Origin: Calothrix sp. HK-06
Lineage (GTDB): Bacteria > Cyanobacteriota > Cyanobacteriia > Cyanobacteriales > Nostocaceae
NCBI RefSeq assembly: GCF_001904745.1
Contig: NZ_MRCD01000062.1
Coordinates: 12,776-55,860 of the forward strand
Direction: 5' to 3'
Length of the DNA: 43,085 bases
Under the pieces are notes generated by a model. It was given only the letters and a program-made list of their open reading frames with translations. It made no database searches and was not told the origin of the DNA. Positions 9,984 through 32,636 of the stretch are shown here, piece by piece (the stretch's first letter is position 1; each line of letters begins with the position of its first letter). Position numbers and translations under genes: made by a program.

Positions 9984-10265
9984 GATTTGAGAATGGGCGG
10001 CAAGGATTAACCCAGTTTATAAGAAGTTTAAAACTTAAGTTAACATTTTTTGGCAATTGGCAACATTGAAGTTTTCACTACGTCTAAAATTATTGCTATT
10101 GATATTTTTAATACTTTGGTTAATAAGCTTTTTAATTGTTAAGCTAGATTGGACATAAATAACAATAGTATAAATTCTTGTATAAATAATACATGTTTAA
10201 TTTTGTAAACAGTGTTAATACTGATAAAAATCAGACTAACCCTAATTGCCTTGAGGAAGCTTCGG

Positions 10266-10949
10266 ATGAGTAGACGGCTACAAAAAACATTAAAAACTGG
10301 AGCCATCTTATTTTTATTAGGATTGAGTCTGGCAGTTTCAGTCATTCTATTTCCTAACCAAGAAGTCGCAATGGCAACTTCTAACTGGCAAGCAGCTTCA
10401 TTTCCAGTAGAAAATTTTCAAGCTTATACGTCCCCTTTTGGCTACCGTCCTTCCGCAACAGGTGGAGGTGGTTGGGAGTTTCACAGCGGTTTAGATATAG
10501 CGGCGCCGCGAGGTAGTTATATTCGTAATTGGTGGACAGGTGTTGTTGTAAAGGTAGAAGACCGTGGCGCCTGTGGTACTCATTTAGTTATTCAATCAGG
10601 ACAATGGCAGCACACTTACTGTCATATGGAAGGAAATGTTGAAACTGCAAACGGTACACGTTACATGGTTGACCGTGCAGGTGGTATACAAATAGCGGTG
10701 GGTATGCAAATTCCTGCAGGAGTCCGAATTGGTCGTGTTGGAATGAGTGGACGTACTACAGGCCCGCATTTGCATTGGGGATTAAAATATAACGGCAATC
10801 ATGTTGACCCAGCATTTATACTGCGGTCTATGTTCGCACAACAACCATCTGGTGTAAGACAAGCAAGACAAGGTTCTTCTTTGATTAAGCAGCAGCAAAC
10901 ACAAATCAATATTCAAGAGTCTAAATTTATTCGAGACTCTGGATATTAA
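10266..10949 (+). CDS. M23 family (LytM-like) peptidase
   Basis: From ATG 10266 the protein is 227 residues. An upstream in-frame ATG exists at 10212, but 10266 has a GAGGAAG ribosome site six bases away, so I prefer it. An N-terminal hydrophobic segment (about residues 12-30, AILFLLGLSLAVSVILF) is a signal peptide or anchor, and AMATS could be the cleavage region. The catalytic domain has the zinc ligands H73 and D77 (FHSGLDIAAP) and H168/H170 (GPHLHWGL). These are the complete M23 set, so it should cut peptide cross-links in the wall. A Gln-rich tail follows. A palindromic repeat separates it from convergent ftsH. Confidence 0.88.
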   Translation: MSRRLQKTLKTGAILFLLGLSLAVSVILFPNQEVAMATSNWQAASFPVENFQAYTSPFGYRPSATGGGGWEFHSGLDIAAPRGSYIRNWWTGVVVKVEDRGACGTHLVIQSGQWQHTYCHMEGNVETANGTRYMVDRAGGIQIAVGMQIPAGVRIGRVGMSGRTTGPHLHWGLKYNGNHVDPAFILRSMFAQQPSGVRQARQGSSLIKQQQTQINIQESKFIRDSGY

Positions 10950-15835: not shown

Positions 15836-17020
15836 TTATTCTCCTAGTTTCTCAAACAAGCGTGCTAAAACTACATTAGAAAATAAAAATCCTTCGGGGT
15901 CAGTTAGTCTTAATCTTCCTGCTTCGGCTATAACCCAACCTTGATCAATATATGGCTGTAGTATCTTTAATATCTCTTCTTCTTTTTCTAAGCCAAAGTT
16001 TTGCTTTATTTTGTCTAAACTAACTCCCTCAGCTAATCTCAACCCTAGCATTAATGTATCTAATAACACTTCTGATGGTGGTGTTACTTCGCAATCTTCT
16101 ACTGCACCTGCTTCTACCCAAGCGTAATATTCTTTGGTTTTACGTGGACGAGTAAACCGTTTACCTTCTACATAACTTGCGGCGCCCATTCCAAAGCCAT
16201 AATAAGGAAGATTTTCCCAGTAAACTCGATTATGGCGACATTGGTGTCCAGGTTGTGCGTAGTTGGAAATTTCGTAATGTGAAAATTCGGCACCTGTTAA
16301 GGTTTTTTGCGCCATTCGATACATGTTAACTGTAGCTTCATCCGTAGGTAAGGGTTTATCTCCAGGTTGGTAGTAACGTCCAAAAGCAGTTCCCGGTTCG
16401 ATGGTGAGGTCATATATAGATATATGGGTAGGCGCCAAAGAAATAGCTTTTTCTAAAGACTCTTGCCACATCCCTAAAGTTTGGTTCGGTAAACCCGATA
16501 TTAAATCAATACTAAATTCAGGAACATTGACTTTGTGTATCAGGTGAGCAGCAGCGTAAATATCCGAGACATTATGCGCGCGTCCACATAACCGTAGTAA
16601 TTCTTCTTGAAATGCTTGTACACCAAAGCTAAAGCGATTAACACCTGCACTGCGATAACCTTCAATATGTTCTAAATCAAAAGTACCTGGGTCAATTTCC
16701 ATAGAAATTTCTACGTCTGTGGAAATACCAAACTTAGAGTCAAGAATTGCTATGATGCACTTTAACTGCTCAGTAGATAACAGCGAAGGAGTTCCACCAC
16801 CAAAAAAAATTGTCTGCAAAGGTTGACTTTGTACTGATGTAAGGGCAATTTCCTGACACAGTACCTCAACGTAGCGCGAAATCGTACTAGAACTTTCACC
16901 GCGTTGCTTATCTCCGACAACCGAAATTGGAAAATCGCAGTAAAAGCATCGGCGCCGACAAAACGGAATATGTACGTAAGCTGCCCGTGGAATGCTAGAA
17001 ATAACTACTTTTGTGTCCAT
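15836..17020 (-). CDS. hemW: HemW family radical SAM protein (heme chaperone)
   Basis: This 394-residue protein has the radical SAM cluster motif C21-RRR-C25-FY-C28 in AYVHIPFCRRRCFYCDF. It continues with TIFFGGGTPSLLS, RFSFGVQAFQEELL and the HemW-type segment CRHNRVYWENLPYYGFG, whose HNxxYW separates HemW from true oxygen-independent coproporphyrinogen oxidase HemN. HemW inserts heme into proteins, for example respiratory enzymes. The ATG at 17020 is the natural start. It is divergent from the PIN/TRAM gene with about 300 bases between them. The second HemN-like protein of this window (28081-29430) is a different family. Confidence 0.9.
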   Translation of the reverse strand: MDTKVVISSIPRAAYVHIPFCRRRCFYCDFPISVVGDKQRGESSSTISRYVEVLCQEIALTSVQSQPLQTIFFGGGTPSLLSTEQLKCIIAILDSKFGISTDVEISMEIDPGTFDLEHIEGYRSAGVNRFSFGVQAFQEELLRLCGRAHNVSDIYAAAHLIHKVNVPEFSIDLISGLPNQTLGMWQESLEKAISLAPTHISIYDLTIEPGTAFGRYYQPGDKPLPTDEATVNMYRMAQKTLTGAEFSHYEISNYAQPGHQCRHNRVYWENLPYYGFGMGAASYVEGKRFTRPRKTKEYYAWVEAGAVEDCEVTPPSEVLLDTLMLGLRLAEGVSLDKIKQNFGLEKEEEILKILQPYIDQGWVIAEAGRLRLTDPEGFLFSNVVLARLFEKLGE

Positions 17021-23649: not shown

Positions 23650-24036
23650 TTACCTCTGATATTCTTGAAGTACAAAAATTTGCTGGCTAGATTTTGGCTG
23701 ATTCTGTTTTTTAATTCTGATAAGGCGATTAGAAAGGTTGGTATTCTCTTTAAGATAGGCATCAAGAGTATTTGCCTGTCCAACGTAATCTCTATCATCT
23801 TTGCAAATAATTATACCAGCGTGGTTAATATTACTGCGGTGTAAACTGATGAAATCATCACGGTTAAGGGTTATGACAACACGATTTTGCTGGGTTGCAA
23901 AAATTAATACTTGTTCATCAGGAATACCCTGGTTAGCTTGTCCTGCTTCATAAGAAGTTAAAACATTGTGCCCTTTTTGACGAAGGATTGTGACGATATC
24001 AAAGGGGAAGTTTTCGTTTGAGTAAAGGTCAGCCAT
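23650..24036 (-). CDS. DUF5615 family PIN-like toxin
   Basis: This 128-residue protein begins MADLYSNENFPFDIVTILRQ and continues GHNVLTSYEAGQANQGIPDE, VVITLNRDDFISLHR and NHAGIIICKDDRD. These match DUF5615, a compact PIN-like nuclease family thought to be the toxin of a type II pair with DUF433. Acidic residues in the first strand and in LNRDDF would form the active site. The canonical first Asp of the family (LxDEN) is changed, as the segment reads YSNEN, so activity is doubtful. ATG 24036 overlaps the DUF433 stop by one base (TAATG), a coupled pair. Confidence 0.88.
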   Translation of the reverse strand: MADLYSNENFPFDIVTILRQKGHNVLTSYEAGQANQGIPDEQVLIFATQQNRVVITLNRDDFISLHRSNINHAGIIICKDDRDYVGQANTLDAYLKENTNLSNRLIRIKKQNQPKSSQQIFVLQEYQR

Positions 24037-24353
24037 TAAATATCATCTTCTTGGTGGGAGGCTATAATGCTGTTAATTTCATCTTGGTGACGATTATAAT
24101 AAGCCCAAGCACTGTTTAAATCATCAAGTGTTAAGCTAGGAAAATTACGGAGTAGCTCTGTATTATCTGCTCCTTGTTGATGAAAGGATACTAATGTCCA
24201 AACGGGTATTCGAGTACTACGAACGCGCGCATGACCCCCACAAATACCAGGAGTTTTCTGGATAGCACTCAGTTTTTCTTGAAGAAGGGCAGTTTCTTCA
24301 GGACTAAGAGATTCGATGATTTGTACAAGTGAGTCAACAAGTTTGGTATTCAT
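24036..24353 (-). CDS. DUF433 family antitoxin
   Basis: This 105-residue protein has the DUF433 core ICGGHARVRSTRIPVWTLVS, then LRNFPSLTLDDLNSAWAYY, a winged-helix-like fold that binds DNA and the DUF5615 toxin. An N-terminal helix (SLVQIIESLSPEETALLQEK) is a common extension in cyanobacteria. It overlaps the toxin start by one base. It also overlaps the end of a small upstream ORF (24334-24507) by 20 bases. Confidence 0.85.
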   Translation of the reverse strand: MNTKLVDSLVQIIESLSPEETALLQEKLSAIQKTPGICGGHARVRSTRIPVWTLVSFHQQGADNTELLRNFPSLTLDDLNSAWAYYNRHQDEINSIIASHQEDDI

Positions 24354-24590: not shown

Positions 24591-25697
24591 ATGGCAGACA
24601 ATCAACCTAGAGATTTTGATGTAGTACTTGGTGGAGATACGGGTTTGGACTTGGTAATTGAAGCATTGCCAAATTTTTCACGGCAAGTGCAACGTTTTGC
24701 AAAAAGATTGTTGAAGCAGCAAGGAGTAGTCCAAGGAAAACAAGCGTTGCTTGATTATTATCCAATGTTGTTTTTCACAAAACTGGAAGATTGGGACATC
24801 GAACAATTTGACCCTAATGCTGGTATAATAAACCCTTCTGAAAAAGCTTATAATATAAACTTAGAGCAATTGAAATTATTATTCACTAGTAAAAATATTT
24901 CTCAACTTGAAGCTTTAATATGCTATCTACCTGAGAGTTCTAGCTATAAATTTTCCGGCTTTTATGACTTTATTAATCTTCTTACCAATAATTGCCAAAA
25001 TTTGATTAACCTTAAAGCTTTATTTATCGGCGACGAAAGAGAAAATCAATATAGGAAATCTCGTGTTCGTATTGGTGATATAAATGTAATCTTAGAAAGT
25101 TGTCCAAACCTGGAAGTTTTGCAGATAAGTGGCTACTGTTCCGAACTAGAATGCAGTATATTACGGCATGATAATTTAAAAACACTGATTATTGAAACTG
25201 CAAGTATAAGTGATATCGTTGTTGAGATGATGTGTTCACTTAATCTACCAGCTTTAGAATATTTTGAACTATGGATGGGTGGTAGGAAATATGAACTTAA
25301 TTTCAATAAACTTATTAAAAATATAAAACCAGTTCTTTTTAGTGAATCCTTTCCAAATATCAGCTATTTAGGGATACGCAGCAGTGAATATGCGGATTAA
25401 ATAGCTGCTGCTATCGCTCAATCTTATTTTATCGCAGAATCCCCTATTGTTGATAATCTAAGAGTACTAGATTTATTAATGCGAAATTTAACAGATGAGG
25501 GTTTAGAGGTTTTACTTGATTGTCCAGCAATCCAAAATTTACACACTCTTAATGTCTCCAACAATTGTGTATCTGAAGAATTTTTTGAGCAAATGGAACA
25601 GCTAGCACCACCTGATTGCTTGTTAATTAAAGATTCTCAGGAACCTATTGTTGAGAGGAATGTTGGTATATCACGTTACTATGCGTTATATGAGTAG
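24591..25697 (+). pseudogene. STM4015 family LRR protein, copy 1, one nonsense codon
   Basis: One frame runs from ATG 24591 to TAG 25697 with a single TAA at 25398-25400. Codons on both sides are homologous to the second copy at 29794-30525. Residues 107-110 onwards hold leucine-rich repeats: NLINLKALFIGDE, CPNLEVLQISGY, LKTLIIETASISD, LPALEYFELWMGG and FPNISYLGIRSSEYAD. After the stop come LRVLDLLMRNLTDEGLEVLL, LHTLNVSNNCVSEEF and the tail RYYALYE. The N-terminus has PRDFDVVLGG, like the start of several cyanobacterial repeat proteins. Nearby relatives would be expected to read SEYADE at the stop, that is GAA to TAA. STM4015 is of unknown function and occurs beside STM4011-4014, as here. Confidence 0.75.
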
Positions 25698-25718
25698 GTC
25701 AGGAAGGATTAATAAATA

Positions 25719-26879
25719 ATGCTAAACTTTATCGCTATTGCAAATCCAGAAAACAGGCGTCTTGGTTTTCTACAACAAGCGCTATCTCATTTCAACTTAC
25801 CACCTGCTACCGTTATTCCTTACGCTGACTTAATTGCAGGCAAACAAACTCTAGAACAATTCAAGGCACCTAATACTATCATCCGCTTTGACTCTCCTGA
25901 GAGAGACTTTGATATTGATAAAGCTATTATTGCCGCAGGTTTTGCCGTACTTGATGACGGACAACACCAGCGTATAAGTCCTGCCGAAGTCGCTTTCTTA
26001 GAGTTTGATAAAGGACGTATTTGTTATCCTCGTCAATGGTATTTAGGCTGGCGCCATCTATTACAACAATGGTTACAGCAATTAAACCCTACCCAGATGC
26101 AGCACTCTGTGGGGTTCATGAACCACCCCGAAGACATTGCTGTGATGTTCGATAAACCAGCATGTCACGAAAAATTCCGGTGCCATAATATTCCCGTTCC
26201 TCGTTCGCTTGGTAAAATTCACAGCTACGACCATTTACGCGAACAAATGGAAAAACAGGAAATAGACCGAGTATTTGTCAAACTCTCCCACAGTTCTGCT
26301 GCTTCTGGAGTTGTTGCTTATCAAACAAATTCAAAGTTTGAGTCAGCTATAACTACTGTTGAACGAGTACGAGAAAACGGGGAAACTTTACTATATAACT
26401 CGCGTAAAATTCGTAATTATACCCGTAGAGAAGAAATTGCCGATATTATTGATATCTTAACAGCGGAAGGTGTGCAGGTCGAAGAATGGCTACCCAAAGC
26501 GCGCTTACAGGGATGTGGTTTTGATGTGCGTGTAGTAGTTATCAACGGTGAAGCGCAGCATATAGTTGTCAGGTTGGGCAAAAGTCCAATGACAAATTTA
26601 CACCTCGGTAACGAAAGAGGTAATAGTGAGGAATTACTAGAAAAAGTCGGCGCCGAAAATTGGGAAACGATGAAGTACACTTGTGAACAAGCAGCAAAGT
26701 TATTTCCGCCTAGTTTATACTGCGGGGTTGATTTATTGATTTTACCTGATTGGAAACAACATACAATTTTAGAAATAAACGCTTTTGGTGATTTGTTACC
26801 AGGGATATTATGGAATGGTATGGATACTTATACAAGTGAGGTCAAAGCAATATTGGAAAGGAATATAAAAGAGGGTTGA
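25719..26879 (+). CDS. STM4014 family ATP-grasp-like protein
   Basis: This 386-residue protein begins MLNFIAIANPENRRLGFLQQ and has an ATP-grasp fold of the RimK type. A lysine strand RVFVKLSHSSAASGVVAY, then EWLPKARLQGCGFDVRVVVI and VRLGKSPMTNLHLGNERG, are followed by the metal/nucleotide end CGVDLLI...HTILEINAFGDLLPG. ATP-grasp enzymes join a carboxylate to an amine or thiol through an acyl-phosphate. In this cassette it would ligate something to the product or to a carrier protein. It starts 21 bases after the STM4015 copy and is on the same strand. The assignment to STM4014 is from the sequence and the gene order. Confidence 0.8.
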   Translation: MLNFIAIANPENRRLGFLQQALSHFNLPPATVIPYADLIAGKQTLEQFKAPNTIIRFDSPERDFDIDKAIIAAGFAVLDDGQHQRISPAEVAFLEFDKGRICYPRQWYLGWRHLLQQWLQQLNPTQMQHSVGFMNHPEDIAVMFDKPACHEKFRCHNIPVPRSLGKIHSYDHLREQMEKQEIDRVFVKLSHSSAASGVVAYQTNSKFESAITTVERVRENGETLLYNSRKIRNYTRREEIADIIDILTAEGVQVEEWLPKARLQGCGFDVRVVVINGEAQHIVVRLGKSPMTNLHLGNERGNSEELLEKVGAENWETMKYTCEQAAKLFPPSLYCGVDLLILPDWKQHTILEINAFGDLLPGILWNGMDTYTSEVKAILERNIKEG

Positions 26880-27245
26880 TTCCCGCACGTTATCTTTTCA
26901 CGGAAATAAACCCAAACTAATCCAAAACTGTCGTGCCATTATTTGTGACTGGCTGTTCATCTCCAAACAATCAAAAGTTCCGGCGCCAATTGCTGTTAAA
27001 GCAATTATTGTGCCAAATGTAATGTTCGCTTAAAGCCTTTTTACGTCAATTCTCCCCCACCACAGCAAAAATGGTTGATACCCTTATTGCAACAGCTTTG
27101 GACTTGATTAATCCAAAACACATAAAAATTGGTTTACAAATTGTTGTTACTGTATCTCATGAACCCGCAATCCGCTGTATCTTAAACCTGTAAAAGCTGG
27201 TAATTGAAGGCGCCTATAAATGTCGTAATAATTGATATGTTTAAC
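26880..27245. other. 366-base gap inside the STM cassette with decayed coding
   Basis: Between STM4014 and STM4013 two short open frames look protein-like without recognisable family: one of about 35 codons ending VKAIIVPNVMFA (stop about 27031), and 27071-27193 from an ATG with LIATALDLINPKHIKIGLQI. They may be the remains of a lost gene. A GGCGCC lies in the first one. No promoter or terminator stands out. Confidence 0.3.
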
Positions 27246-28034
27246 ATGAATCAAATTGTCGGGACTCACGACATATTATTTATCACCCTGGATACTTTGC
27301 GCTATGACGTAGCTAAGGAACTACTTACCCAAGGGCGCCTTCCTAATTTAGCCGCAGTACTTCCAAAAACAGGTTGGGAGCAACGCCATTCTCCCGGTAA
27401 TTTTACTTATGCTGCTCATCATGCTTTTTTCGCGGGTTTTCTCCCTACTCCCATAACCCCAGGTATTCACCCACGTCCTTTTGCTTTGGGGTTTGAAGGC
27501 AGCACTTCTACTACAGAAAATACTTGTGTTTTGGAAGGCACCAATATTGTCGAAGGGTTAGCAGTTAGAGGCTACCATACAGTTTGTATCGGCGGTGTGG
27601 GATTTTTTAATAAACTCAATCCTTTAGGTAACGTCTTGCCGTCAATGTTCGCTGAGAGCCACTGGAGTCGAGAGTTAGGAGTTACTAACCCTGACTCGAC
27701 AGAAAAGCAAATAGCACTAACACAAGAAATTTTAGAAAGAACACCAAAAAGTCAGCGCGTATTCTTATTTATAAATATCTCCGCACTGCATCAACCGAAC
27801 TACTTTTACCTACCAGGTGCTAAAACCGACACTATCGAATCTCACGGCGCCGCTTTGGAATATGTAGATAGCCAACTTGGTAAACTTTGGGATGCTTTGC
27901 GGCAAAGAGGTTCAACATTTTGCATTCTTTGCTCCGACCACGGGACAACTTATGGTGATGACGGATACACTGGACATAGATTGAGCCATCCTGTTGTATG
28001 GACGGTTCCTTATGCAGAGTTTATTTTAGGTTAG
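27246..28034 (+). CDS. STM4013/SEN3800 family hydrolase
   Basis: From ATG 27246 (the longer frame starts at a TTG) the protein is 262 residues in the alkaline phosphatase/sulfatase superfamily. It has DILFITLDTLRYDV (metal-binding D16), a nucleophile region GNFTYAAHHAFFAGFLPTP with a Thr in place of the sulfatase Cys/Ser, and LHQPNYFYLPG. The metal-binding CSDHGTTYGDDGY...GHRLSHP follows near the C-terminus. A Thr nucleophile suggests a phosphatase or phosphonate-type hydrolase rather than a formylglycine sulfatase. Within the cassette it may remove a phosphate or prepare a substrate for the radical SAM enzymes. The natural substrate is unknown. Confidence 0.82.
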   Translation: MNQIVGTHDILFITLDTLRYDVAKELLTQGRLPNLAAVLPKTGWEQRHSPGNFTYAAHHAFFAGFLPTPITPGIHPRPFALGFEGSTSTTENTCVLEGTNIVEGLAVRGYHTVCIGGVGFFNKLNPLGNVLPSMFAESHWSRELGVTNPDSTEKQIALTQEILERTPKSQRVFLFINISALHQPNYFYLPGAKTDTIESHGAALEYVDSQLGKLWDALRQRGSTFCILCSDHGTTYGDDGYTGHRLSHPVVWTVPYAEFILG

Positions 28035-28080
28035 AGGGATTATCATATCCCTAAATTTAACAAAACCCATTTAAAATCAA

Positions 28081-29430
28081 ATGATTACAACCCAAATTCA
28101 AAATCCCAAATCTCAAATCTCAAATCTCAAATCTAAAATCTCTCAATCTCCTTACCAAGCTTACGTCTACTCCTACCCCCACAAAACCGCATACCGTCCC
28201 CTCACCCCACCCGTAAACCTTGCCAACTTATGGTCAAACCAAAATAAAAGCGCATTATTTCTCTACATTCACATACCCTTCTGCGAAATGCGCTGCGGGT
28301 TCTGCAACTTATTTACCACCGTTACCCACAACGAAGATTTTGTAACTCAATACGTCCGCGCGCTACAGCGACAAGCGCAACGGGTAAAATCAACTTTAGG
28401 AAAATCATCATTCGCGCGCTTTGCCATTGGTGGAGGAACACCAACTCAACTACCCATCCAGCACCTTGAAACAATCCTTGATATTGCTGAACAAACGATG
28501 GGCGCCAACTTACAGTCCATTCCTATTTCTGTAGAAGTTTCCCCAGAGACAGTAACCGAAGATAAATTAAAGCTGTTACGAGAACGAGGCACCGATAGAA
28601 TTAGTATAGGTGTCCAAAGTTTCATTGAGTCAGAAGTTCTCGCAACCCAACGGCGCCAAACTACTCCTCAAGTCGAAGCAGCTTTAGGAAGAATCCGCGA
28701 AGCAGGTTTTCCCACATTAAATATTGACTTAATTTACGGGCTTCCCGAACAAACTGTAGAAACTTTTTTACAATCAATACATGCTGCATTGCAATTTCAA
28801 CCAGAGGAAATTTATCTATATCCTTTGTACGTGCGACCACTCACGGGTTTAGGACGTACTGATAAAGAATGGGATGATATTCGTCTCGCTTGCTACCGTA
28901 CAGGGCGCCTGTTGTTGCTATCTGAAGGATATTCTCAAGTTTCAATGCGGATGTTTCAACGGCGCGAAAATAATCCTGCGTTACCTGTTTACTGCTGTCA
29001 AGCCGATGGTATGGTTGGTTTAGGATGCGGCGCCCGTACTTACACCGATACTTTGCACTATTCTAATGACTACGCGGTTGGTGTTAAAGAAATTCGCGAT
29101 ATTTTACAAGCTTATATACACAGTGATGAAGCTTTTGATTTTGCTAGCTATGGGTTTAAGTTAGATGCAGATGAACAACGGCGCCGTTATATTTTGCTAT
29201 CTCTCCTTTCTGATGAAGGTTTGAATTTTGCTAGCTATCAGCAAAAGTTTAATAGCAGTGTTTATATAGATTTTTCTGAACTTAGGGAAGTGAAAGAGTT
29301 AAATTTGGGAATGGAAGATGGGGAAATATTGCGGTTGACTGAAGCTGGTATTGAACTTTCTGATGTAATTGGCGCCTGGTTGTTTTCTCTTAAGGTACAG
29401 GAGTTGATGGAAGGTTATGAGTTGAAATAA
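28081..29430 (+). CDS. STM4012 family HemN-like radical SAM protein
   Basis: This 449-residue protein has the radical SAM motif C68-EMR-C72-GF-C75 in FLYIHIPFCEMRCGFCNLF. It continues with FAIGGGTPTQL, RISIGVQSFIESEVLATQRR and LNIDLIYGLPEQTVETFLQS. It resembles HemN/HemW but has no HNxxYW, so it is not a coproporphyrinogen oxidase; the separate hemW at 15836-17020 fills the heme chaperone role. The family sequence starts near residue 23 (SPYQAYVYSYPHKTAYRP). The residues before that are encoded by a tandem heptanucleotide repeat (28101-28142), so the native start was altered by a repeat insertion. It is 46 bases after STM4013. Confidence 0.85.
   Translation: MITTQIQNPKSQISNLKSKISQSPYQAYVYSYPHKTAYRPLTPPVNLANLWSNQNKSALFLYIHIPFCEMRCGFCNLFTTVTHNEDFVTQYVRALQRQAQRVKSTLGKSSFARFAIGGGTPTQLPIQHLETILDIAEQTMGANLQSIPISVEVSPETVTEDKLKLLRERGTDRISIGVQSFIESEVLATQRRQTTPQVEAALGRIREAGFPTLNIDLIYGLPEQTVETFLQSIHAALQFQPEEIYLYPLYVRPLTGLGRTDKEWDDIRLACYRTGRLLLLSEGYSQVSMRMFQRRENNPALPVYCCQADGMVGLGCGARTYTDTLHYSNDYAVGVKEIRDILQAYIHSDEAFDFASYGFKLDADEQRRRYILLSLLSDEGLNFASYQQKFNSSVYIDFSELREVKELNLGMEDGEILRLTEAGIELSDVIGAWLFSLKVQELMEGYELK
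28101..28142 (+). repeat. Tandem heptanucleotide repeat in the STM4012 N-terminus
   Basis: Six tandem 7-base units (AAATCCC, AAATCTC three times, AAATCTA, AAATCTC) occupy 42 bases. Six times seven is 14 codons, so the frame is preserved. It is an STRR-type repeat like that at 13851-13932 but of a different unit. Confidence 0.85.
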
Positions 29431-29450
29431 ACTGGCAACGGATATAACGG

Positions 29451-29615
29451 ATGGGTTTTAAAACCTCTCCCCCAACCCCTCTTCTTGTAAGAGTAGAAGA
29501 CCCTGATGATACGACCGTTGAGGAAGTAAAAGCTAGTTTAAGGAAAGCTTTACAACAAGCCTCATCTGGGCGACGTTTACCATTGTCTCAAATGTGGGAA
29601 GACATTACTTCCTGA
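29451..29615 (+). CDS. Small conserved ORF, 54 residues
   Basis: From ATG 29451 a 54-residue frame reads LLVRVEDPDDTTVEEVKASL, then RKALQQASSGRRLPLSQMWE and DITS. It resembles short cyanobacterial proteins with an acidic helix followed by LPLSQMWEDI, often annotated as hypothetical or antitoxin-like. Its first codons (GFKTSPPTP) come from an intergenic CTCTCCCCCAACCCCTCT repeat, so the true start may be later or the repeat may have trimmed it. No toxin is adjacent. It lies between STM4012 and the second STM4015. The stretch from 29616 to 29793 shows no gene. Confidence 0.4.
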   Translation: MGFKTSPPTPLLVRVEDPDDTTVEEVKASLRKALQQASSGRRLPLSQMWEDITS

Positions 29616-29793
29616 CTTCCTGATGAAGGAGTGTTTAGTGATGGGATTTTAGAAATAATTCCGCAACAGCTATTGTTCAGTTAAAGCTGCTGCAAAGACT
29701 TCTTCAGCCGTTAGCTGCAATGAATTGAATGTAGGCGAAACAATGCGGTCGCTACCACGAAATTGAACAGGCTTCTGACAGGTTGAAGCTTTA

Positions 29794-30525
29794 GTGTTTG
29801 GATTTTGGTATACAACTTACTTTGAATATTATAATTTATGTCCTGCTATAGACTTACTACTTCAATTTCATGAAAAAATTACTAATGTTAAAGCTTTATT
29901 TTTTGGAGATATTAATAATAATAGATGGGAGGATATTCAATTTAGCTATAGCAATATTTGTTATGTTCTATTAGCGTATCCACAGCTAGAATTATTGAAA
30001 ATTCGCATAAGTTATTATCATAGATTTTATCAAATTTGGAGGGTTGAATTTAGCCACATTCGGCATGAAAAATTAAAAGCTCTTATTATTGAAGGTTGTG
30101 ATATTACGACTAGCGTAATAGAAGAAATTTTTAAACTTGAATTACCTAATTTAGAATATCTTGAACTTTGGCTTGACATAAACGATTATGATGTAAGCGA
30201 ATTGAATTTTCACAATAAGTTTCCAAAACTTAAGTATTTAGGGATACATAGTTATAATAATCACTCAGAACATATAGACATTTATTTTGCAATTATAGAT
30301 TCTTTAGAAATTGAAAATTTAGTTGAACTAAACCTTTCAAGAGGAGCAATACAAGATGAAGCAGCAAAATATTTACTTAATTGTCCGGCAGTTCGTCAAC
30401 TAGATACTCTTGATATTTCTTATAATTGTTTAACTGATGGGATGATTGAAAAATTTAATCAATTAAATATTGAAGTTATTTCTGAGAAGCAAGAACCATA
30501 TAGGTATTGGTCTGCATATGAGTAA
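29794..30525 (+). CDS. STM4015 family LRR protein, copy 2, N-terminally truncated
   Basis: This 243-residue frame starts at GTG 29794. Its first residues align with positions 110 onwards of copy 1 (EALVFGFW against EALICYLP), and codons for VEAL immediately upstream are in frame but follow a TGA. The first third of the protein is therefore missing. The leucine-rich repeats NVKALFFGDI, YPQLELLKIRISY, LKALIIEGCDITTS, LPNLEYLELWLD, LKYLGIH and LVELNLSRGAIQDEAA are intact, as is the tail RYWSAYE. It lies directly upstream of STM4011. Copy number two of this family in one cassette suggests substrate or partner diversification. Confidence 0.75.
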   Translation: MFGFWYTTYFEYYNLCPAIDLLLQFHEKITNVKALFFGDINNNRWEDIQFSYSNICYVLLAYPQLELLKIRISYYHRFYQIWRVEFSHIRHEKLKALIIEGCDITTSVIEEIFKLELPNLEYLELWLDINDYDVSELNFHNKFPKLKYLGIHSYNNHSEHIDIYFAIIDSLEIENLVELNLSRGAIQDEAAKYLLNCPAVRQLDTLDISYNCLTDGMIEKFNQLNIEVISEKQEPYRYWSAYE

Positions 30526-30540
30526 CTAAATTAGATGAGT

Positions 30541-30571
30541 AGGGCAGGCAGGGATGCCTGCTCCACAAGAG
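30541..30571. repeat. GGGCAGGCAGGGATGCCTG repeat between STM4015 and STM4011
   Basis: A copy of the dispersed unit also seen at 941-1014, 22121-22150 and 23563-23619. CAGGCAGGGATGCCTG forms a short hairpin. It follows copy 2 of STM4015 by 15 bases. Confidence 0.65.
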
Positions 30572-30620
30572 TTATCTTTATAATACTGATATATTAGGGT
30601 TTGATAATAATGGAGTTTAT

Positions 30621-31487
30621 ATGCATTTGAACATTCTTTATCGGGGTTCTTTGGTTAGTTGTAATTACGGTTGTGAGTATTGTCCTTTTGCGAAGCGTCA
30701 GCAAACAGCGGCTGAATTAGCTAGTGATAAACAAGATTTGGAACGGTTTGTGAATTGGGTTTCTCAACATCCACAACATGAGTTTTCAATTCTTTTTACT
30801 CCTTGGGGTGAGGCGTTAATTCATCGCTGTTATCAAGAAGCTTTGGTAAGGTTAACTCAAATGTCTCATGTTAATAAGGCTGCTATTCAAACTAATCTTT
30901 CTTGTAATTTAGATTGGGTGGAGGAGTGTAATAAGGATAAACTGGCACTTTGGGCTACTTTTCACCCGGAATGGGTAGAAAGAGACAGTTATGTTGCTAA
31001 ATGTCTGGAACTGGATAGACGAGGCGCCCGTTTTAGTGCTGGTGTGGTAGGTTTCCCGCAGTTTAAACATGAAATTGCTGCTTTGCGTCAAGATTTACCA
31101 GAACATGTGTATTTGTGGATTAACGCAGTAAAGGCGGAGTTGCCGAATTTATCACAAGAAGACAGGGAGTTTTTTAAGTCTATTGACCCGTTGTATGAAT
31201 TGAATACGCAACATTACCCAAGTTTTGGACGTTCTTGCCGCGCGGGTAAGTCAGCCCTAACGGTTGACGGTCAGGGTACAATGCGACGTTGCCATTTTAT
31301 CAAGGTGCCGATTGGTAATATATATGATGATAACTGGGAAGATTATTTAGTTGATAGAACCTGTACAAATAAAACTTGCCATTGTCACATTGGCTACGTC
31401 CATTTAGAGTATTTAGAACTTAATAAGGTGTTTGGCTCAGGAATTTTAGAAAGGATTCCACAACAGATAGCCCTGCGTAAACTGTAA
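30621..31487 (+). CDS. STM4011 family radical SAM protein
   Basis: This 288-residue protein has the radical SAM motif C14-NYG-C18-EY-C21 in SCNYGCEYCPFAKRQ, with FTPWGEAL and AAIQTNLSC following. Its C-terminal third holds further cysteines (RSCRAGKSALTVDGQGTMRR-C, then CTNKTCHCHIGYVHL), enough to bind one or two auxiliary iron-sulfur clusters of the SPASM/twitch type. Such enzymes often modify peptides or proteins by radical chemistry. It is the last gene of the STM4015-4011 cassette, on the same strand. The next gene is convergent and unrelated. Confidence 0.85.
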   Translation: MHLNILYRGSLVSCNYGCEYCPFAKRQQTAAELASDKQDLERFVNWVSQHPQHEFSILFTPWGEALIHRCYQEALVRLTQMSHVNKAAIQTNLSCNLDWVEECNKDKLALWATFHPEWVERDSYVAKCLELDRRGARFSAGVVGFPQFKHEIAALRQDLPEHVYLWINAVKAELPNLSQEDREFFKSIDPLYELNTQHYPSFGRSCRAGKSALTVDGQGTMRRCHFIKVPIGNIYDDNWEDYLVDRTCTNKTCHCHIGYVHLEYLELNKVFGSGILERIPQQIALRKL

Positions 31488-31525: not shown

Positions 31526-32431
31526 TCATGTCTCATCTCCAGTCCATTGAAACCGCTCCTTTAAATCATTACAGTGATTTTTTGGTAAAAAATTATCGTG
31601 TTGAAGTCTACCAACTACGATACCCGGTGCAATGCCAATCTTTGAGGCAAATTTTTCTATACCCGCTTTACTACGTTGTTGACCAGAATTTAAAAATTCC
31701 TTGAATTCAGCAGGAGGTATAAGTATGTCTTCGGCGAATTTATTTGCTTCTGTTTCTTTATCTTGTTCTTCGGCAGCTTCACTACCTTTACCTTCTAGAA
31801 AAATATCTCGTTTACCATGTAATAAGATATGACCTGCTTCATGGAAAAAGCCAAACCATAAATGGTCATTTGTTTTGTAGCGTAAGCTAAGTTGAATTAA
31901 AGCTTTCTCAGAAGTTAACCAACGAGTTGCGCCACAAGTTCTTGTTTTTGGTAGCTGAGGAACAAAAACTACAGCGACACCAGCTGTTGCACACAAACGT
32001 ACTACTTCGGATTGAAAAATCTGTGGTGGTTCCAGTGTCAGCCTGCGAATATACTCTAAGGCTTCCTTAAATTTTTTTGCATCATAAGGCATACACAAAA
32101 TTTGTGCCGCTTCAATTTCTCCTCGACGCAGCCAAGCTGCCACATCGCCAAAATTACTCTCGAACGTTTGAGACTTACGAAAATACACCGGCGCATTAGA
32201 CCATATATTCCCCCATTGGTCAGGGGAAGCGACGGAAAAAAAACTCAGCACCTCCCGCAGTTGCTCAACTTTATCCTCAAATTGTTGAATCCAGCCAGCT
32301 TTAATCATAGCTTTTACCGGAATCTGGTCAAGCCAATTTACCTGTTGCTGTAAACTGTCTTTATCTTCTTGCCGTGAATCATGCTTCTCTGTAACGTCGT
32401 TCGCGGTTATTCCAAAAACTCGCTGATACAC
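31526..32431 (-). pseudogene. ImmA/IrrE metallopeptidase part of a split HTH-ImmA gene
   Basis: The frame ends at 31526 and contains the zinc peptidase motif in FFHEAGHILLHGKRD with downstream KETEANKFAEDILIPP, the ImmA/IrrE (DUF955) pattern. Upstream, EDKDSLQQQVNWLDQIPVKA is the normal linker that follows an HTH-XRE domain in longer proteins of this type. Here the two halves are in different frames: the HTH frame stops at 32379. Residues before about DSRQEDKD in this ORF (MYQRVFGITANDV) are only another frame of the HTH region. One inserted base, or two lost bases, near 32374-32381 would explain the split. As written, the two parts could still be made as separate proteins. Confidence 0.8.
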
Positions 32432-32636
32432 CCAGCACTTTTTCTAATTGCAATGCTGTCTCTGGGGTAATTGCAGTTTTACCGTTAATAATTTCGTTAA
32501 TAGTTTTTTTCGGTCTACCTGTCCTTTCTGCCAGTTCTGCCTGGGACATCCCACGCTCTTCAAGAATTTCCTGAAGAGTTTCTCCTGGGGGAGAAACATA
32601 GTCTGGGGCGTACTGATTTTGGAACTCATTACTCAT
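32379..32636 (-). CDS. HigA-type HTH-XRE antitoxin, split from ImmA by frameshift
   Basis: This 85-residue protein starts MSNEFQNQYAPDYVSPPGET and has a clear helix-turn-helix: ERGMSQAELAERTGRPKKTI, then NEIINGKTAITPETALQLEK, VLGVSASFWNNRERRYREA. Relatives continue into an ImmA/IrrE peptidase in one polypeptide. It stops early here because of the frameshift that separates it from 31526-32431. ATG 32636 overlaps the end of the HigB remnant by eight bases, the usual arrangement for a higBA pair. It probably still binds DNA, and a free HTH may act as a repressor of the locus. Confidence 0.85.
   Translation of the reverse strand: MSNEFQNQYAPDYVSPPGETLQEILEERGMSQAELAERTGRPKKTINEIINGKTAITPETALQLEKVLGVSASFWNNRERRYREA

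What the first reader, a model, noticed from the sequence alone, without database searches (positions are those of the whole stretch)
24591..31487. STM4011-STM4015 type cassette: an uncharacterised radical SAM pathway
Six same-strand genes match families known only by their Salmonella locus names: LRR protein STM4015, ATP-grasp STM4014, hydrolase STM4013, HemN-like radical SAM STM4012, a second STM4015 and a radical SAM STM4011 with extra C-terminal cysteines. Two radical SAM enzymes, an ATP-grasp ligase and a phosphatase/sulfatase-fold enzyme around a small LRR protein look like a modification or biosynthetic pathway whose product is unknown. The motifs are seen in the sequence; the family names are from memory of family databases; the pathway idea is inference.
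Basis: partly seen in the sequence, partly recalled or inferred. Interest (0 to 1): 0.85.

Follow-up and report, generated by a model that had tools for sequence, protein, structure and literature searches.

The report
Enzyme cassette with glutamate-tailed LRR protein
A five-gene bacterial cassette of unknown function may work on the last amino acids of its own small leucine-rich-repeat protein, which nearly always ends in a short tail with a final glutamate; the gene families already had names, but what they act on was not known, and this gives a testable answer.

Summary
Genes 25719-31487 are STM4014, STM4013, STM4012 and STM4011, each over its NCBIfam cut-off; the two STM4015-like LRR genes are damaged (an in-frame TAA in copy A, a missing N-terminus in copy B), and other STM4015 copies lie elsewhere in the genome. 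The order 4015-4014-4013-4012-4011 recurs across phyla.
The new element is a likely substrate. STM4015 proteins end in a short tail, typically R-Y-x-A/S-V-x-E with nothing after the Glu: 108 of 111 end in Glu, against 5 of 311 for the other four proteins together. STM4014 is distantly related to LysX/ArgX and RimK, ATP-grasp ligases that act on a C-terminal Glu of a partner protein; its best fold match is the ArgX:LysW complex. STM4011 has a Twitch cysteine pattern; STM4012 is HemN-like. STM4015 and STM4014 co-occur almost perfectly in three genome samples; three Streptomyces STM4015s in enzyme-free genomes lack the terminal Glu.
Best reading: STM4015 is a carrier or protein substrate whose C-terminal Glu is ligated by STM4014, with radical SAM chemistry on the tail or attached group. 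Every chemical step is inferred; no modification has been seen. The families were already catalogued.

The parts
24591..25697 (+). STM4015 copy A (LRR protein), damaged: in-frame TAA at 25398-25400, then open in the same frame to TAG 25695-25697; part of the N-terminal region missing
   Evidence: NF038076 100.9 bits, below cut-off; frame read; comparison with NIES-4105
25671..25694 (+). C-terminal tail of copy A (SRYYALYE), downstream of the premature stop
   Evidence: 8 of 8 residues identical to the NIES-4105 counterpart
25719..26879 (+). STM4014, RimK/LysX-like ATP-grasp ligase
   Evidence: NF038074 426.7 bits; the five PDB profile hits at E up to 0.01 are LysX or RimK, best E 0.0004 (names); Foldseek top hit ArgX:LysW 3vpb; dN/dS 0.115
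26592..26612 (+). STM4014 TNLHLGN segment (T292-L296 invariant in 64 of 64 aligned homologues)
   Evidence: likeness to the corresponding RimK segment is recalled
27237..28034 (+). STM4013, alkaline-phosphatase/sulfatase-superfamily hydrolase (longest ORF starts TTG 27204; ATG 27237 or 27246 likelier)
   Evidence: NF038075 432.4 bits; PDB relatives NPP phosphodiesterase and sulfatases; invariant D19, T57, N180, H185, D234, H235, H247 counted from 27237
28081..29430 (+). STM4012, HemN-like radical SAM enzyme with HemN_C domain
   Evidence: NF006067 621.8 bits; PF04055 and PF06969; PDB relatives HemN 1olt and methyltransferase NocN; dN/dS 0.152
28282..28305 (+). CX3CX2C radical SAM cluster motif of STM4012
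   Evidence: C68, C72, C75 invariant in 46 aligned sequences
29794..30525 (+). STM4015 copy B (LRR protein), N-terminally truncated; homology runs back to about 29779, behind an in-frame TGA
   Evidence: NF038076 129.9 bits
30499..30522 (+). C-terminal tail of copy B (YRYWSAYE)
   Evidence: last 20 residues identical to NIES-4105, whole compared stretch 63% identical
30621..31487 (+). STM4011, Twitch-type radical SAM enzyme
   Evidence: NF038073 415.2 bits; dN/dS 0.08
30660..30683 (+). CX3CX2C radical SAM cluster motif of STM4011
   Evidence: C14, C18, C21 invariant in 66 aligned sequences
31236..31385 (+). Auxiliary-cluster cysteines of STM4011: C-x12-G-x4-C ... CX4CXC
   Evidence: C206, C224, C248, C253, C255 invariant; pattern count; comparison with SkfB/PqqE from PMC6231123 passages

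Best explanation
The cassette is a protein-tethered pathway. STM4015 is a folded LRR carrier (or final substrate) protein that presents a short C-terminal tail, typically Arg-Tyr-x4-Glu-COOH, behind an acidic linker. STM4014, a RimK/LysX-type ATP-grasp ligase, activates the terminal Glu (gamma- or alpha-carboxylate) and couples an amine or amino acid to it. The Twitch radical SAM enzyme STM4011 and the HemN-type radical SAM enzyme STM4012 then act on the attached unit and/or on tail residues such as the Tyr. STM4013 removes or moves a phosphoryl or sulfuryl group, with a HAD hydrolase beside it in some loci. The five core genes include no peptidase, so either the product stays on STM4015 as a built-in modification or an unlinked peptidase releases it. 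Shown by computation: families, gene order, tail conservation, co-occurrence, fold relatives. Inferred: every chemical step.
For: (1) Tail: of 111 STM4015 ORFs of at least 120 bits in 95 loci, all with a stop codon, 108 end in Glu; residue -6 is Tyr in 94 and Phe in 8, -7 is Arg in 89, -3 is Val in 89. STM4014, 4013, 4012 and 4011 end in Glu in 0/75, 4/85, 0/77 and 1/74. (2) A tail-coding DNA pattern gave 43 exact matches in 52 cassette genomes, the reversed pattern 5; comparing coordinates by eye, 39 of the 43 are at the 3' end of STM4015 matches. (3) Ligase: the five PDB sequences hit by the STM4014 profile at E up to 0.01 are LysX and RimK (best E 0.0004); Foldseek of a pLDDT 94 model ranks ArgX complexed with LysW first (E 4.4e-12), then PsnB, DcsG, RimK and LysX. 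LysX/ArgX join an amino group to the gamma-carboxyl of the C-terminal Glu of LysW (PMC10433800, passages). (4) STM4015 sits directly upstream of STM4014 on the same strand in 61 of the 62 loci (of 80) holding both: 57 by script and L063, L064, L067, L098 by coordinates, also where the pair is inverted. (5) Co-occurrence over cut-off: the same 4 of 292 cyanobacteria; 62 shared among 140 Streptomyces (4 with STM4015 only, 1 with STM4014 only); 96 shared among 200 in the family of G324 (1 and 0). (6) The three Streptomyces genomes with STM4015 over cut-off but neither STM4014 nor STM4011 over cut-off encode STM4015 proteins without terminal Glu, 3/3, against 3/52 in enzyme-bearing Streptomyces read (p 8e-4). 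One of them, G590, keeps an STM4011 remnant with a stop inside. (7) A pentapeptide-repeat protein beside the STM4015 genes of L052 ends HRYELVGE, the best tail score of 5821 other ORFs. (8) Pearlin pathways use a carrier peptide and a radical SAM methyltransferase (PMC9303977, passages).
Against: No modified protein or product has been observed. The AlphaFold model of STM4015 gives the tail fair confidence (blocks 91 and 83) with short strands rather than disorder, which also fits a structural cap. The Arg and the Tyr spacing are not universal (E. coli VYMNPMFTE, Salmonella IYMNAMYTE). Three of 111 proteins, all cyanobacterial paralogues, lack the Glu. Tail loss in orphans is few events: G522 resembles tail-less copies in two enzyme-bearing genomes (L241, L243), and G590 may too, so perhaps two independent losses. 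Of 52 cassette genomes one (G306) has no STM4015 match and G323, which has 4013, 4012 and 4011, has only weak LRR matches (best E 4e-11). No peptidase for release is in the core. STM4014 is only 13-17% identical to ArgX or RimK, and other ATP-grasp enzymes (graspetide ligases, DcsG, D-Ala-D-Ala ligase) score close behind. The co-occurrence argument fits any obligatory partner, not only a substrate.
Confidence: 0.57

Rival explanations
1. The tail is a docking or capping peptide: STM4015 is a scaffold or regulator that recruits STM4014 and the radical SAM enzymes (or closes its own LRR solenoid) through its C-terminus, without being modified.
For: Tail fairly well ordered in the model; LRRs commonly bind proteins (recalled); the LRR body has strongly conserved residues too, such as W135, W204 and Y210 of the L048 protein.
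Against: The chain end itself is fixed, 108/111 with Glu as last residue, behind a linker of variable length, and the nearest relatives of the ligase use that very residue as substrate. A pentapeptide-repeat protein, another fold, carries the tail in L052, though this is one case.
Confidence: 0.2
2. A free small-molecule pathway: STM4014, 4013, 4012 and 4011 make a diffusible metabolite and STM4015 is an accessory protein (sensor, immunity or chaperone).
For: Such enzyme sets are common in small-molecule pathways (recalled); STM4013 stands without other cassette genes within 8 kb in a KSB3 contig (L058) whose genome has no STM4015 match.
Against: STM4015 is as tightly linked as the enzymes tested and next to the ligase in 61 of 62 loci; an accessory would not need a fixed C-terminal Glu.
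Confidence: 0.13
3. A RiPP: the C-terminal segment is a core peptide, cross-linked or methylated by the radical SAM enzymes and closed by the ATP-grasp enzyme, then cut off and exported.
For: The Twitch cysteine pattern of STM4011 recalls the sactisynthase SkfB; graspetide ligases PsnB and MdnC are near in fold; an MFS transporter gene on the other strand lies within 60 bases of the core in four loci (L092, L106, L111, L120).
Against: The 'core' is nearly constant and lacks the Cys or Ser/Thr acceptors at fixed places that these classes use (recalled); a conserved 300-residue LRR would be an unusual leader. Of the nine neighbour families shared by at least five loci the only peptidase is an M23 gene 1-5 kb away (five loci); two of the nine were not identified.
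Confidence: 0.1

Closest known systems
LysW/LysX (ArgX) amino-group carrier protein systems, and AmCP pathways such as vazabitide A
   Same: RimK-type ATP-grasp ligase paired with a protein ending in a fixed Glu behind acidic residues; best fold match is the ArgX:LysW complex; the C-terminal Glu is the attachment site in LysW (PMC10433800 and PMC9303977, passages)
   Different: STM4015 is a ~300-residue LRR protein, not a ~54-residue zinc protein; the tail is RYVAVSE-like, not EDWGE; two radical SAM enzymes and a phosphatase/sulfatase-fold enzyme instead of the lysine-type enzymes
RimK, ribosomal protein S6 glutamate ligase
   Same: Profile and fold relative; adds Glu to the C-terminus of S6 (title of a reference seen)
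   Different: Partner is ribosomal S6, no radical SAM partners (recalled); STM4014 is a separate NCBIfam family (426.7 bits against 24.6 for rimK_fam)
Pearlin (PEARL) pathways such as 3-thiaglutamate and 3-thiahomoleucine
   Same: Amino-acid derived product built on a ribosomal carrier, with a radical SAM methyltransferase (PMC9303977, passages)
   Different: Loading there is by a tRNA-dependent peptide aminoacyl-tRNA ligase (abstracts), here by an ATP-grasp enzyme; carrier is a short peptide, here an LRR protein
SPASM/Twitch radical SAM systems (SkfB, PqqE)
   Same: STM4011 has CX9-15GX4C and a CX4CXC like SkfB
   Different: No RRE domain reported for STM4011 by Pfam at E up to 0.01; no short precursor gene recognised; no PDB hit for the STM4011 profile
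2RA8, uncharacterised Bacteroides fragilis protein Q64V53
   Same: Solved member of the STM4015 family (256.8 bits; 31% identity in Foldseek); the match ends SYPMITE, eight residues before the chain end, probably a tag
   Different: Longer N-terminal part; named 'uncharacterized' in the results

Membership tests
NCBIfam STM4011/4012/4013/4014 families | Whole-protein score over the curated cut-off | tested here: met
   415.2/200, 621.8/380, 432.4/250, 426.7/175 bits
NCBIfam STM4015 family | Whole-protein score over the cut-off of 275 bits | tested here: not met
   Window copies 100.9 and 129.9 bits, both damaged or truncated; two other copies of the same genome score 303.5 and 301.4
STM401x cassette | Order 4015-4014-4013-4012-4011 on one strand | tested here: met
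   Window, with an extra 4015 between 4012 and 4011; 57 of 80 related loci hold all five genes within the stretch fetched, some with the 4015-4014 pair inverted
LysW/LysX amino-group carrier system | RimK-fold ligase paired with a carrier ending in Glu | tested here: met
   that STM4015 is a carrier is inference
LysW/LysX amino-group carrier system | Carrier is a small zinc-binding LysW with EDWGE end | tested here: not met
   STM4015 is an LRR protein with a RYxAVxE-type end
LysW/LysX amino-group carrier system | Isopeptide bond to the gamma-carboxyl of the terminal Glu | not testable with these tools
   needs mass spectrometry
SPASM/Twitch radical SAM enzymes | CX9-15GX4C plus further C-terminal cysteines for an auxiliary cluster | tested here: met
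   65 of 66 rows have CX9-15GX4C and 66 of 66 CX4CXC; the full seven-cysteine SPASM motif is not present, so Twitch rather than SPASM
HemN coproporphyrinogen oxidase | Score over the hemN cut-off (324.95 bits) | tested here: not met
   165 bits for hemN against 621.8 for STM4012
Formylglycine sulfatases | Catalytic Cys/Ser in C/S-x-P-x-R | tested here: not met
   Consensus at the expected place is PGSFTYAAH with invariant F-T; motif and place recalled
Known anti-phage defence systems (PADLOC) | Strong match of cassette proteins to a defence model | tested here: not met
   48 bits of STM4012 to PDC-M51A, 19.5 of STM4011 to pVip, 17.8 of a DUF6745 protein to Cas12f; read as shared domains or chance

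The most novel reading that the evidence does not exclude
STM4015 is a new class of carrier protein: an LRR scaffold whose C-terminal Glu is loaded by a dedicated ATP-grasp ligase, with radical SAM chemistry done on the loaded end. This would be a third kind of protein-tethered amino-acid chemistry beside AmCP and PEARL pathways, present in cyanobacteria, actinobacteria, myxobacteria, planctomycetes, Deinococcus and enterobacteria; or the loaded end stays and makes STM4015 an LRR protein with a built-in redox or metal cofactor.
Probability: 0.42. Interest if true: 0.86.

Novelty: new variant of a known kind. Interest (0 to 1): 0.72.

Why it matters
These families are widespread yet known only by Salmonella locus names: full-text searches for STM4011 to STM4015 and SEN3800 found two papers, with one table entry each. 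The fixed Glu end of STM4015 and the LysX/RimK kinship of STM4014 point to a substrate and a bond, so one mass-spectrometry experiment can settle the first step. If right, it adds an LRR-based carrier system spread over many phyla and gives a handle for finding its product.

Tried and rejected
Defence system: PADLOC gives only weak or superfamily-level matches. Phage origin: PHROGs give a 38-bit radical SAM match for STM4011 and a 60-bit match of the DUF6745-linked small protein, nothing for the other four proteins tried. Earlier description of a tail or carrier role: searches for the STM401x names, for LRR with ATP-grasp and radical SAM, for amidoligases with LRR, for DUF6745 and for LRR with RiPP terms showed none in the listings of the library held; subscription journals are mostly outside it. 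The graspetide survey PMC8939145 does not contain 'leucine-rich', 'LRR', 'HemN' or 'STM40' (word search of the main text).

Selection effects and limits. The alignment A4 of STM4015 (86 rows, terminal Glu 86/86) left out 10 of the 96 eligible proteins, among them two of the three that lack the Glu, so its invariance is not evidence; the fair count is 108/111. Eight ORFs under 120 bits were outside that count; 6 of the 8 end in Glu. A2 (64 of 66 eligible STM4014), A5 (46 of 69 STM4012) and A6 (49 of 77 STM4013 plus three plasmid ones) were subsets too. The strict STM4012 expression HIPFC..RC.FC matched only 25 of 46 rows because flanking residues vary; the cysteines are invariant. In Streptomyces, G524 was counted as enzyme-bearing though its STM4014 is a 141-bit piece; G562 holds a decayed cassette and was not used in the tail count; G512 and G596 have STM4011 without an STM4015 over cut-off, G596 on a 3.5 kb contig. 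Of 14 dispersed copies read in enzyme-bearing Streptomyces, 11 end in Glu; L241, L243 and L255 do not; a first Fisher test left out L255 and was redone. Mirror-tree correlations (0.72-0.93) are not used, since shared ancestry alone gives them. Before final filing I looked at the neighbour families again. This turned up ATP-sulfurylase/APS-kinase, sulfotransferase, MFS, ABC and M23 genes; I withdrew a draft claim that no exporter recurs and a draft preference for phosphatase over sulfatase, and lowered confidence from 0.58 to 0.57.


Full report
Observation. ORFs at the given coordinates match the named NCBIfam families: STM4014, STM4013, STM4012 and STM4011 are each over the curated cut-off, and two LRR genes match STM4015 below it. 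Copy A of STM4015 has an in-frame TAA at 25398-25400 and the frame then runs open to 25695-25697; copy B lacks its N-terminal part. Against Calothrix NIES-4105 the four enzymes (4014, 4013, 4012, 4011) have dN/dS 0.115, 0.122, 0.152 and 0.08, copy A 0.196 and copy B 0.44. In copy B the last 20 codons show no amino-acid change and two silent ones, while the rest has dN 0.28; the stretch is short and gene conversion is not excluded. The genome holds five further STM4015 matches on contig C35, one of them flagged with two stop codons in the matched stretch. Two score over the cut-off and end RYCSVAE, two more open frames end RYSATYE and RYYSIWE, and one ends without a tail.

Distribution and order. 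Annotated records show STM4015-4014-4013-4012-4011 in Salmonella, Paenibacillus, Deinococcus, Streptomyces, Methylobacterium and E. coli; a Bacteroides plasmid keeps 4015, 4014 and 4011 with remnants of 4013 and 4012. In E. coli, 154 of 5426 complete genomes carry a homologue of the Salmonella 4013-4011 stretch. A scan of GTDB genomes with STM4013 gave 80 loci, from cyanobacteria, myxobacteria, planctomycetes, Chloroflexota, actinobacteria and others. In these 80, 57 hold all five genes within the DNA fetched, 62 hold both STM4015 and STM4014, 26 hold two or more STM4015, and 33 hold a DUF6745 gene with a ~100-residue partner. A HAD hydrolase stands just upstream of STM4013 in 10 loci, in 7 of them behind STM4014 on the same strand. 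In 292 cyanobacteria STM4013, STM4014 and STM4015 exceed their cut-offs in the same four genomes. In 140 Streptomyces 66, 63 and 65 genomes have STM4015, STM4014 and STM4011 over cut-off, and 62 have all three. In 200 genomes of the family of G324, 97 have STM4015, 96 of these STM4014, and no other genome has STM4014 over cut-off. Of 52 cassette genomes chosen by STM4013, 51 have an STM4015 match at E up to 0.001 and 37 one over the cut-off; G306 has none and G323 only weak LRR matches.

The tail. In the 95 loci scanned, 111 STM4015 ORFs reach 120 bits and all have a stop codon; 108 end in Glu, with Tyr or Phe at -6 in 102 and Arg at -7 in 89. The other four proteins end in Glu in 5 of 311. 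The linker before the tail varies in length and is mostly acidic. The exceptions are three cyanobacterial paralogues (L038, L044, L049). The Bacteroides and enterobacterial form differs (WYYPMITE, IYMNAMYTE, VYMNPMFTE) but keeps the Glu. A DNA pattern for the tail matched 43 times in 52 genomes against 5 for its reversal; by eye I place 39 of the 43 at the 3' end of STM4015 matches, two beside or in STM4015 fragments (G295, G333), and two elsewhere (G292 position 7001795 and G317). Outside the family, the best tail score among 5821 other ORFs belongs to a pentapeptide-repeat protein, cut by the contig end, next to the STM4015 genes of L052 and ending HRYELVGE (score 10.5; 99.9th percentile 4.8). 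This is one case.

Orphans. Three Streptomyces genomes (G522, G563, G590) have an STM4015 over the cut-off but no STM4014 or STM4011 over cut-off. Their proteins score 283-322 bits with my profile and end SISVGPLTY, RYVSIAV and WRSICVEGLP: none ends in Glu. G590 keeps a 54-bit STM4011 piece with a stop inside. In enzyme-bearing Streptomyces read the same way, 49 of 52 end in Glu: 38 of 38 in the 30 loci of the best matches and 11 of 14 dispersed copies (Fisher p 8e-4). The SISVGPLTY type also occurs in two enzyme-bearing genomes, so the independent losses may be only two.

Enzymes. STM4014: the PDB profile hits (five, best E 0.0004) are LysX and RimK; model pLDDT 94.3; Foldseek top match ArgX with LysW (3vpb, E 4.4e-12), followed by PsnB, DcsG, RimK and LysX. 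LysX/ArgX join an amino group to the gamma-carboxyl of the C-terminal Glu of LysW (PMC10433800, passages), and AmCP and PEARL routes are compared in PMC9303977 (passages). STM4011: CX3CX2C, C-x12-G-x4-C and CX4CXC. The SkfB paper (PMC6231123, passages) gives the SPASM consensus and says SkfB and PqqE use a CXC pair for the auxiliary cluster, CX4CXC being the earlier proposal for SkfB. STM4012: HemN family, PDB relatives HemN and the methyltransferase NocN, more weakly Elp3. STM4013: alkaline-phosphatase/sulfatase superfamily, PDB relatives NPP phosphodiesterase and sulfatases. An invariant Thr sits where the nucleophile would be (by analogy), which speaks against a formylglycine sulfatase. On the other side, in two myxobacterial loci (L075, L084) the STM4013 frame overlaps the end of an ATP-sulfurylase/APS-kinase gene, and three diverged STM4013 relatives in other cyanobacteria (L040, L041, L042) lie by sulfotransferase-like genes, the last a weak match. 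So a sulfuryl group is as open as a phosphoryl group. STM4015: LRR, pLDDT 93, with a solved relative, 2RA8.

Mechanism. The simplest joint reading is that STM4015 is the substrate: STM4014 loads its C-terminal Glu, STM4011 and STM4012 transform the load or the tail, STM4013 handles a phosphoryl or sulfuryl group. The loading step rests on distant kinship and tail conservation; the later steps are inference. No peptidase is in the core set, which leaves open whether the product is released. A docking-tail reading is the main rival and is not excluded, since the model gives the tail some order.

Literature. STM4011 to STM4015 and SEN3800 occur in two papers of the held library (a third paper holds only STM4010). 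In the passages seen (PMC2784778, PMC3844500; one each) STM4015 is a hypothetical gene in a positive-selection table and STM4013.S an entry in a sigma-54 binding table. I found no report of function.

In passing. The window uses GGCGCC as its iterated palindrome: 76 copies (shuffles mean 4.5, largest 11) and no HIP1 GCGATCGC; the NIES-4105 stretches do the same, while five of six other cyanobacterial stretches have 10-26 HIP1 copies, one has a single copy, and none has GGCGCC.

Noticed in passing
whole window; also L184, L185, L190, L044, L186: GGCGCC occurs 76 times in 43 kb (shuffle mean 4.5, largest 11) and HIP1 (GCGATCGC) never; the same in NIES-4105 stretches, while L037, L038, L039, L047 and L048 have 10-26 HIP1 and no GGCGCC (L045: one and none). 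Looks like a swap of the highly iterated palindrome in this lineage.
   Followed up: partly
23650-24353 (-): DUF5615 and DUF433 gene pair, perhaps toxin-antitoxin, just upstream of the cassette; by its sequence a similar pair lies next to the cassette of L039 at 10230-10885 (not run against Pfam).
   Followed up: no
31526-32636 (-): HigA-type HTH protein overlapping an IrrE/M78 peptidase-like protein, just downstream.
   Followed up: no
L075 1371-3829; L084 602-3069; L040, L041, L042: STM4013 overlaps an ATP-sulfurylase/APS-kinase gene in two myxobacterial loci, and three diverged STM4013 relatives lie by sulfotransferase-like genes: a hint of sulfate chemistry.
   Followed up: partly
33 of 80 loci, e.g. 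L059, L074; also L032 10031-11352, L034 2168-3632, L035 3504-4829: DUF6745 protein paired with a ~100-residue protein beside the cassette. Both have fixed C-termini: DUF6745 ends in Thr in 35 of 36, the small one in Asp in 36 of 36. The small one has a PHROG match and no Pfam match in the two tried.
   Followed up: partly
L053, L055, L060, L061, L070, L076, L096, L108, L112, L114: HAD hydrolase just upstream of STM4013 (three run against Pfam); Salmonella and E. coli have a Cof-type HAD directly after STM4011.
   Followed up: partly
L052 5476-5988 (-): Pentapeptide-repeat protein (cut at the contig end) ending HRYELVGE, next to STM4015 genes: the STM4015 tail on another fold.
   Followed up: partly
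L038 1618-10313; L184 8685-12758; L051 12210-15809: Cyanobacterial STM4015 paralogues carry an N-terminal FDAVLGG module (weak HEAT match below cut-off in one) and come in arrays or dispersed copies; more ORFs with this module follow the cassette in L051.
   Followed up: no
L033 6665-8922; L058: STM4013 outside the cassette: beside a NUDIX gene and a lasso-peptide B2 gene in Streptomyces albidoflavus, and without cassette neighbours within 8 kb in a KSB3 contig.
   Followed up: no
15836-17020 (-): A second HemN-family radical SAM gene in the window, perhaps HemW (152 bits with the STM4012 profile; radical SAM and HemN_C domains); not part of the cassette.
   Followed up: no
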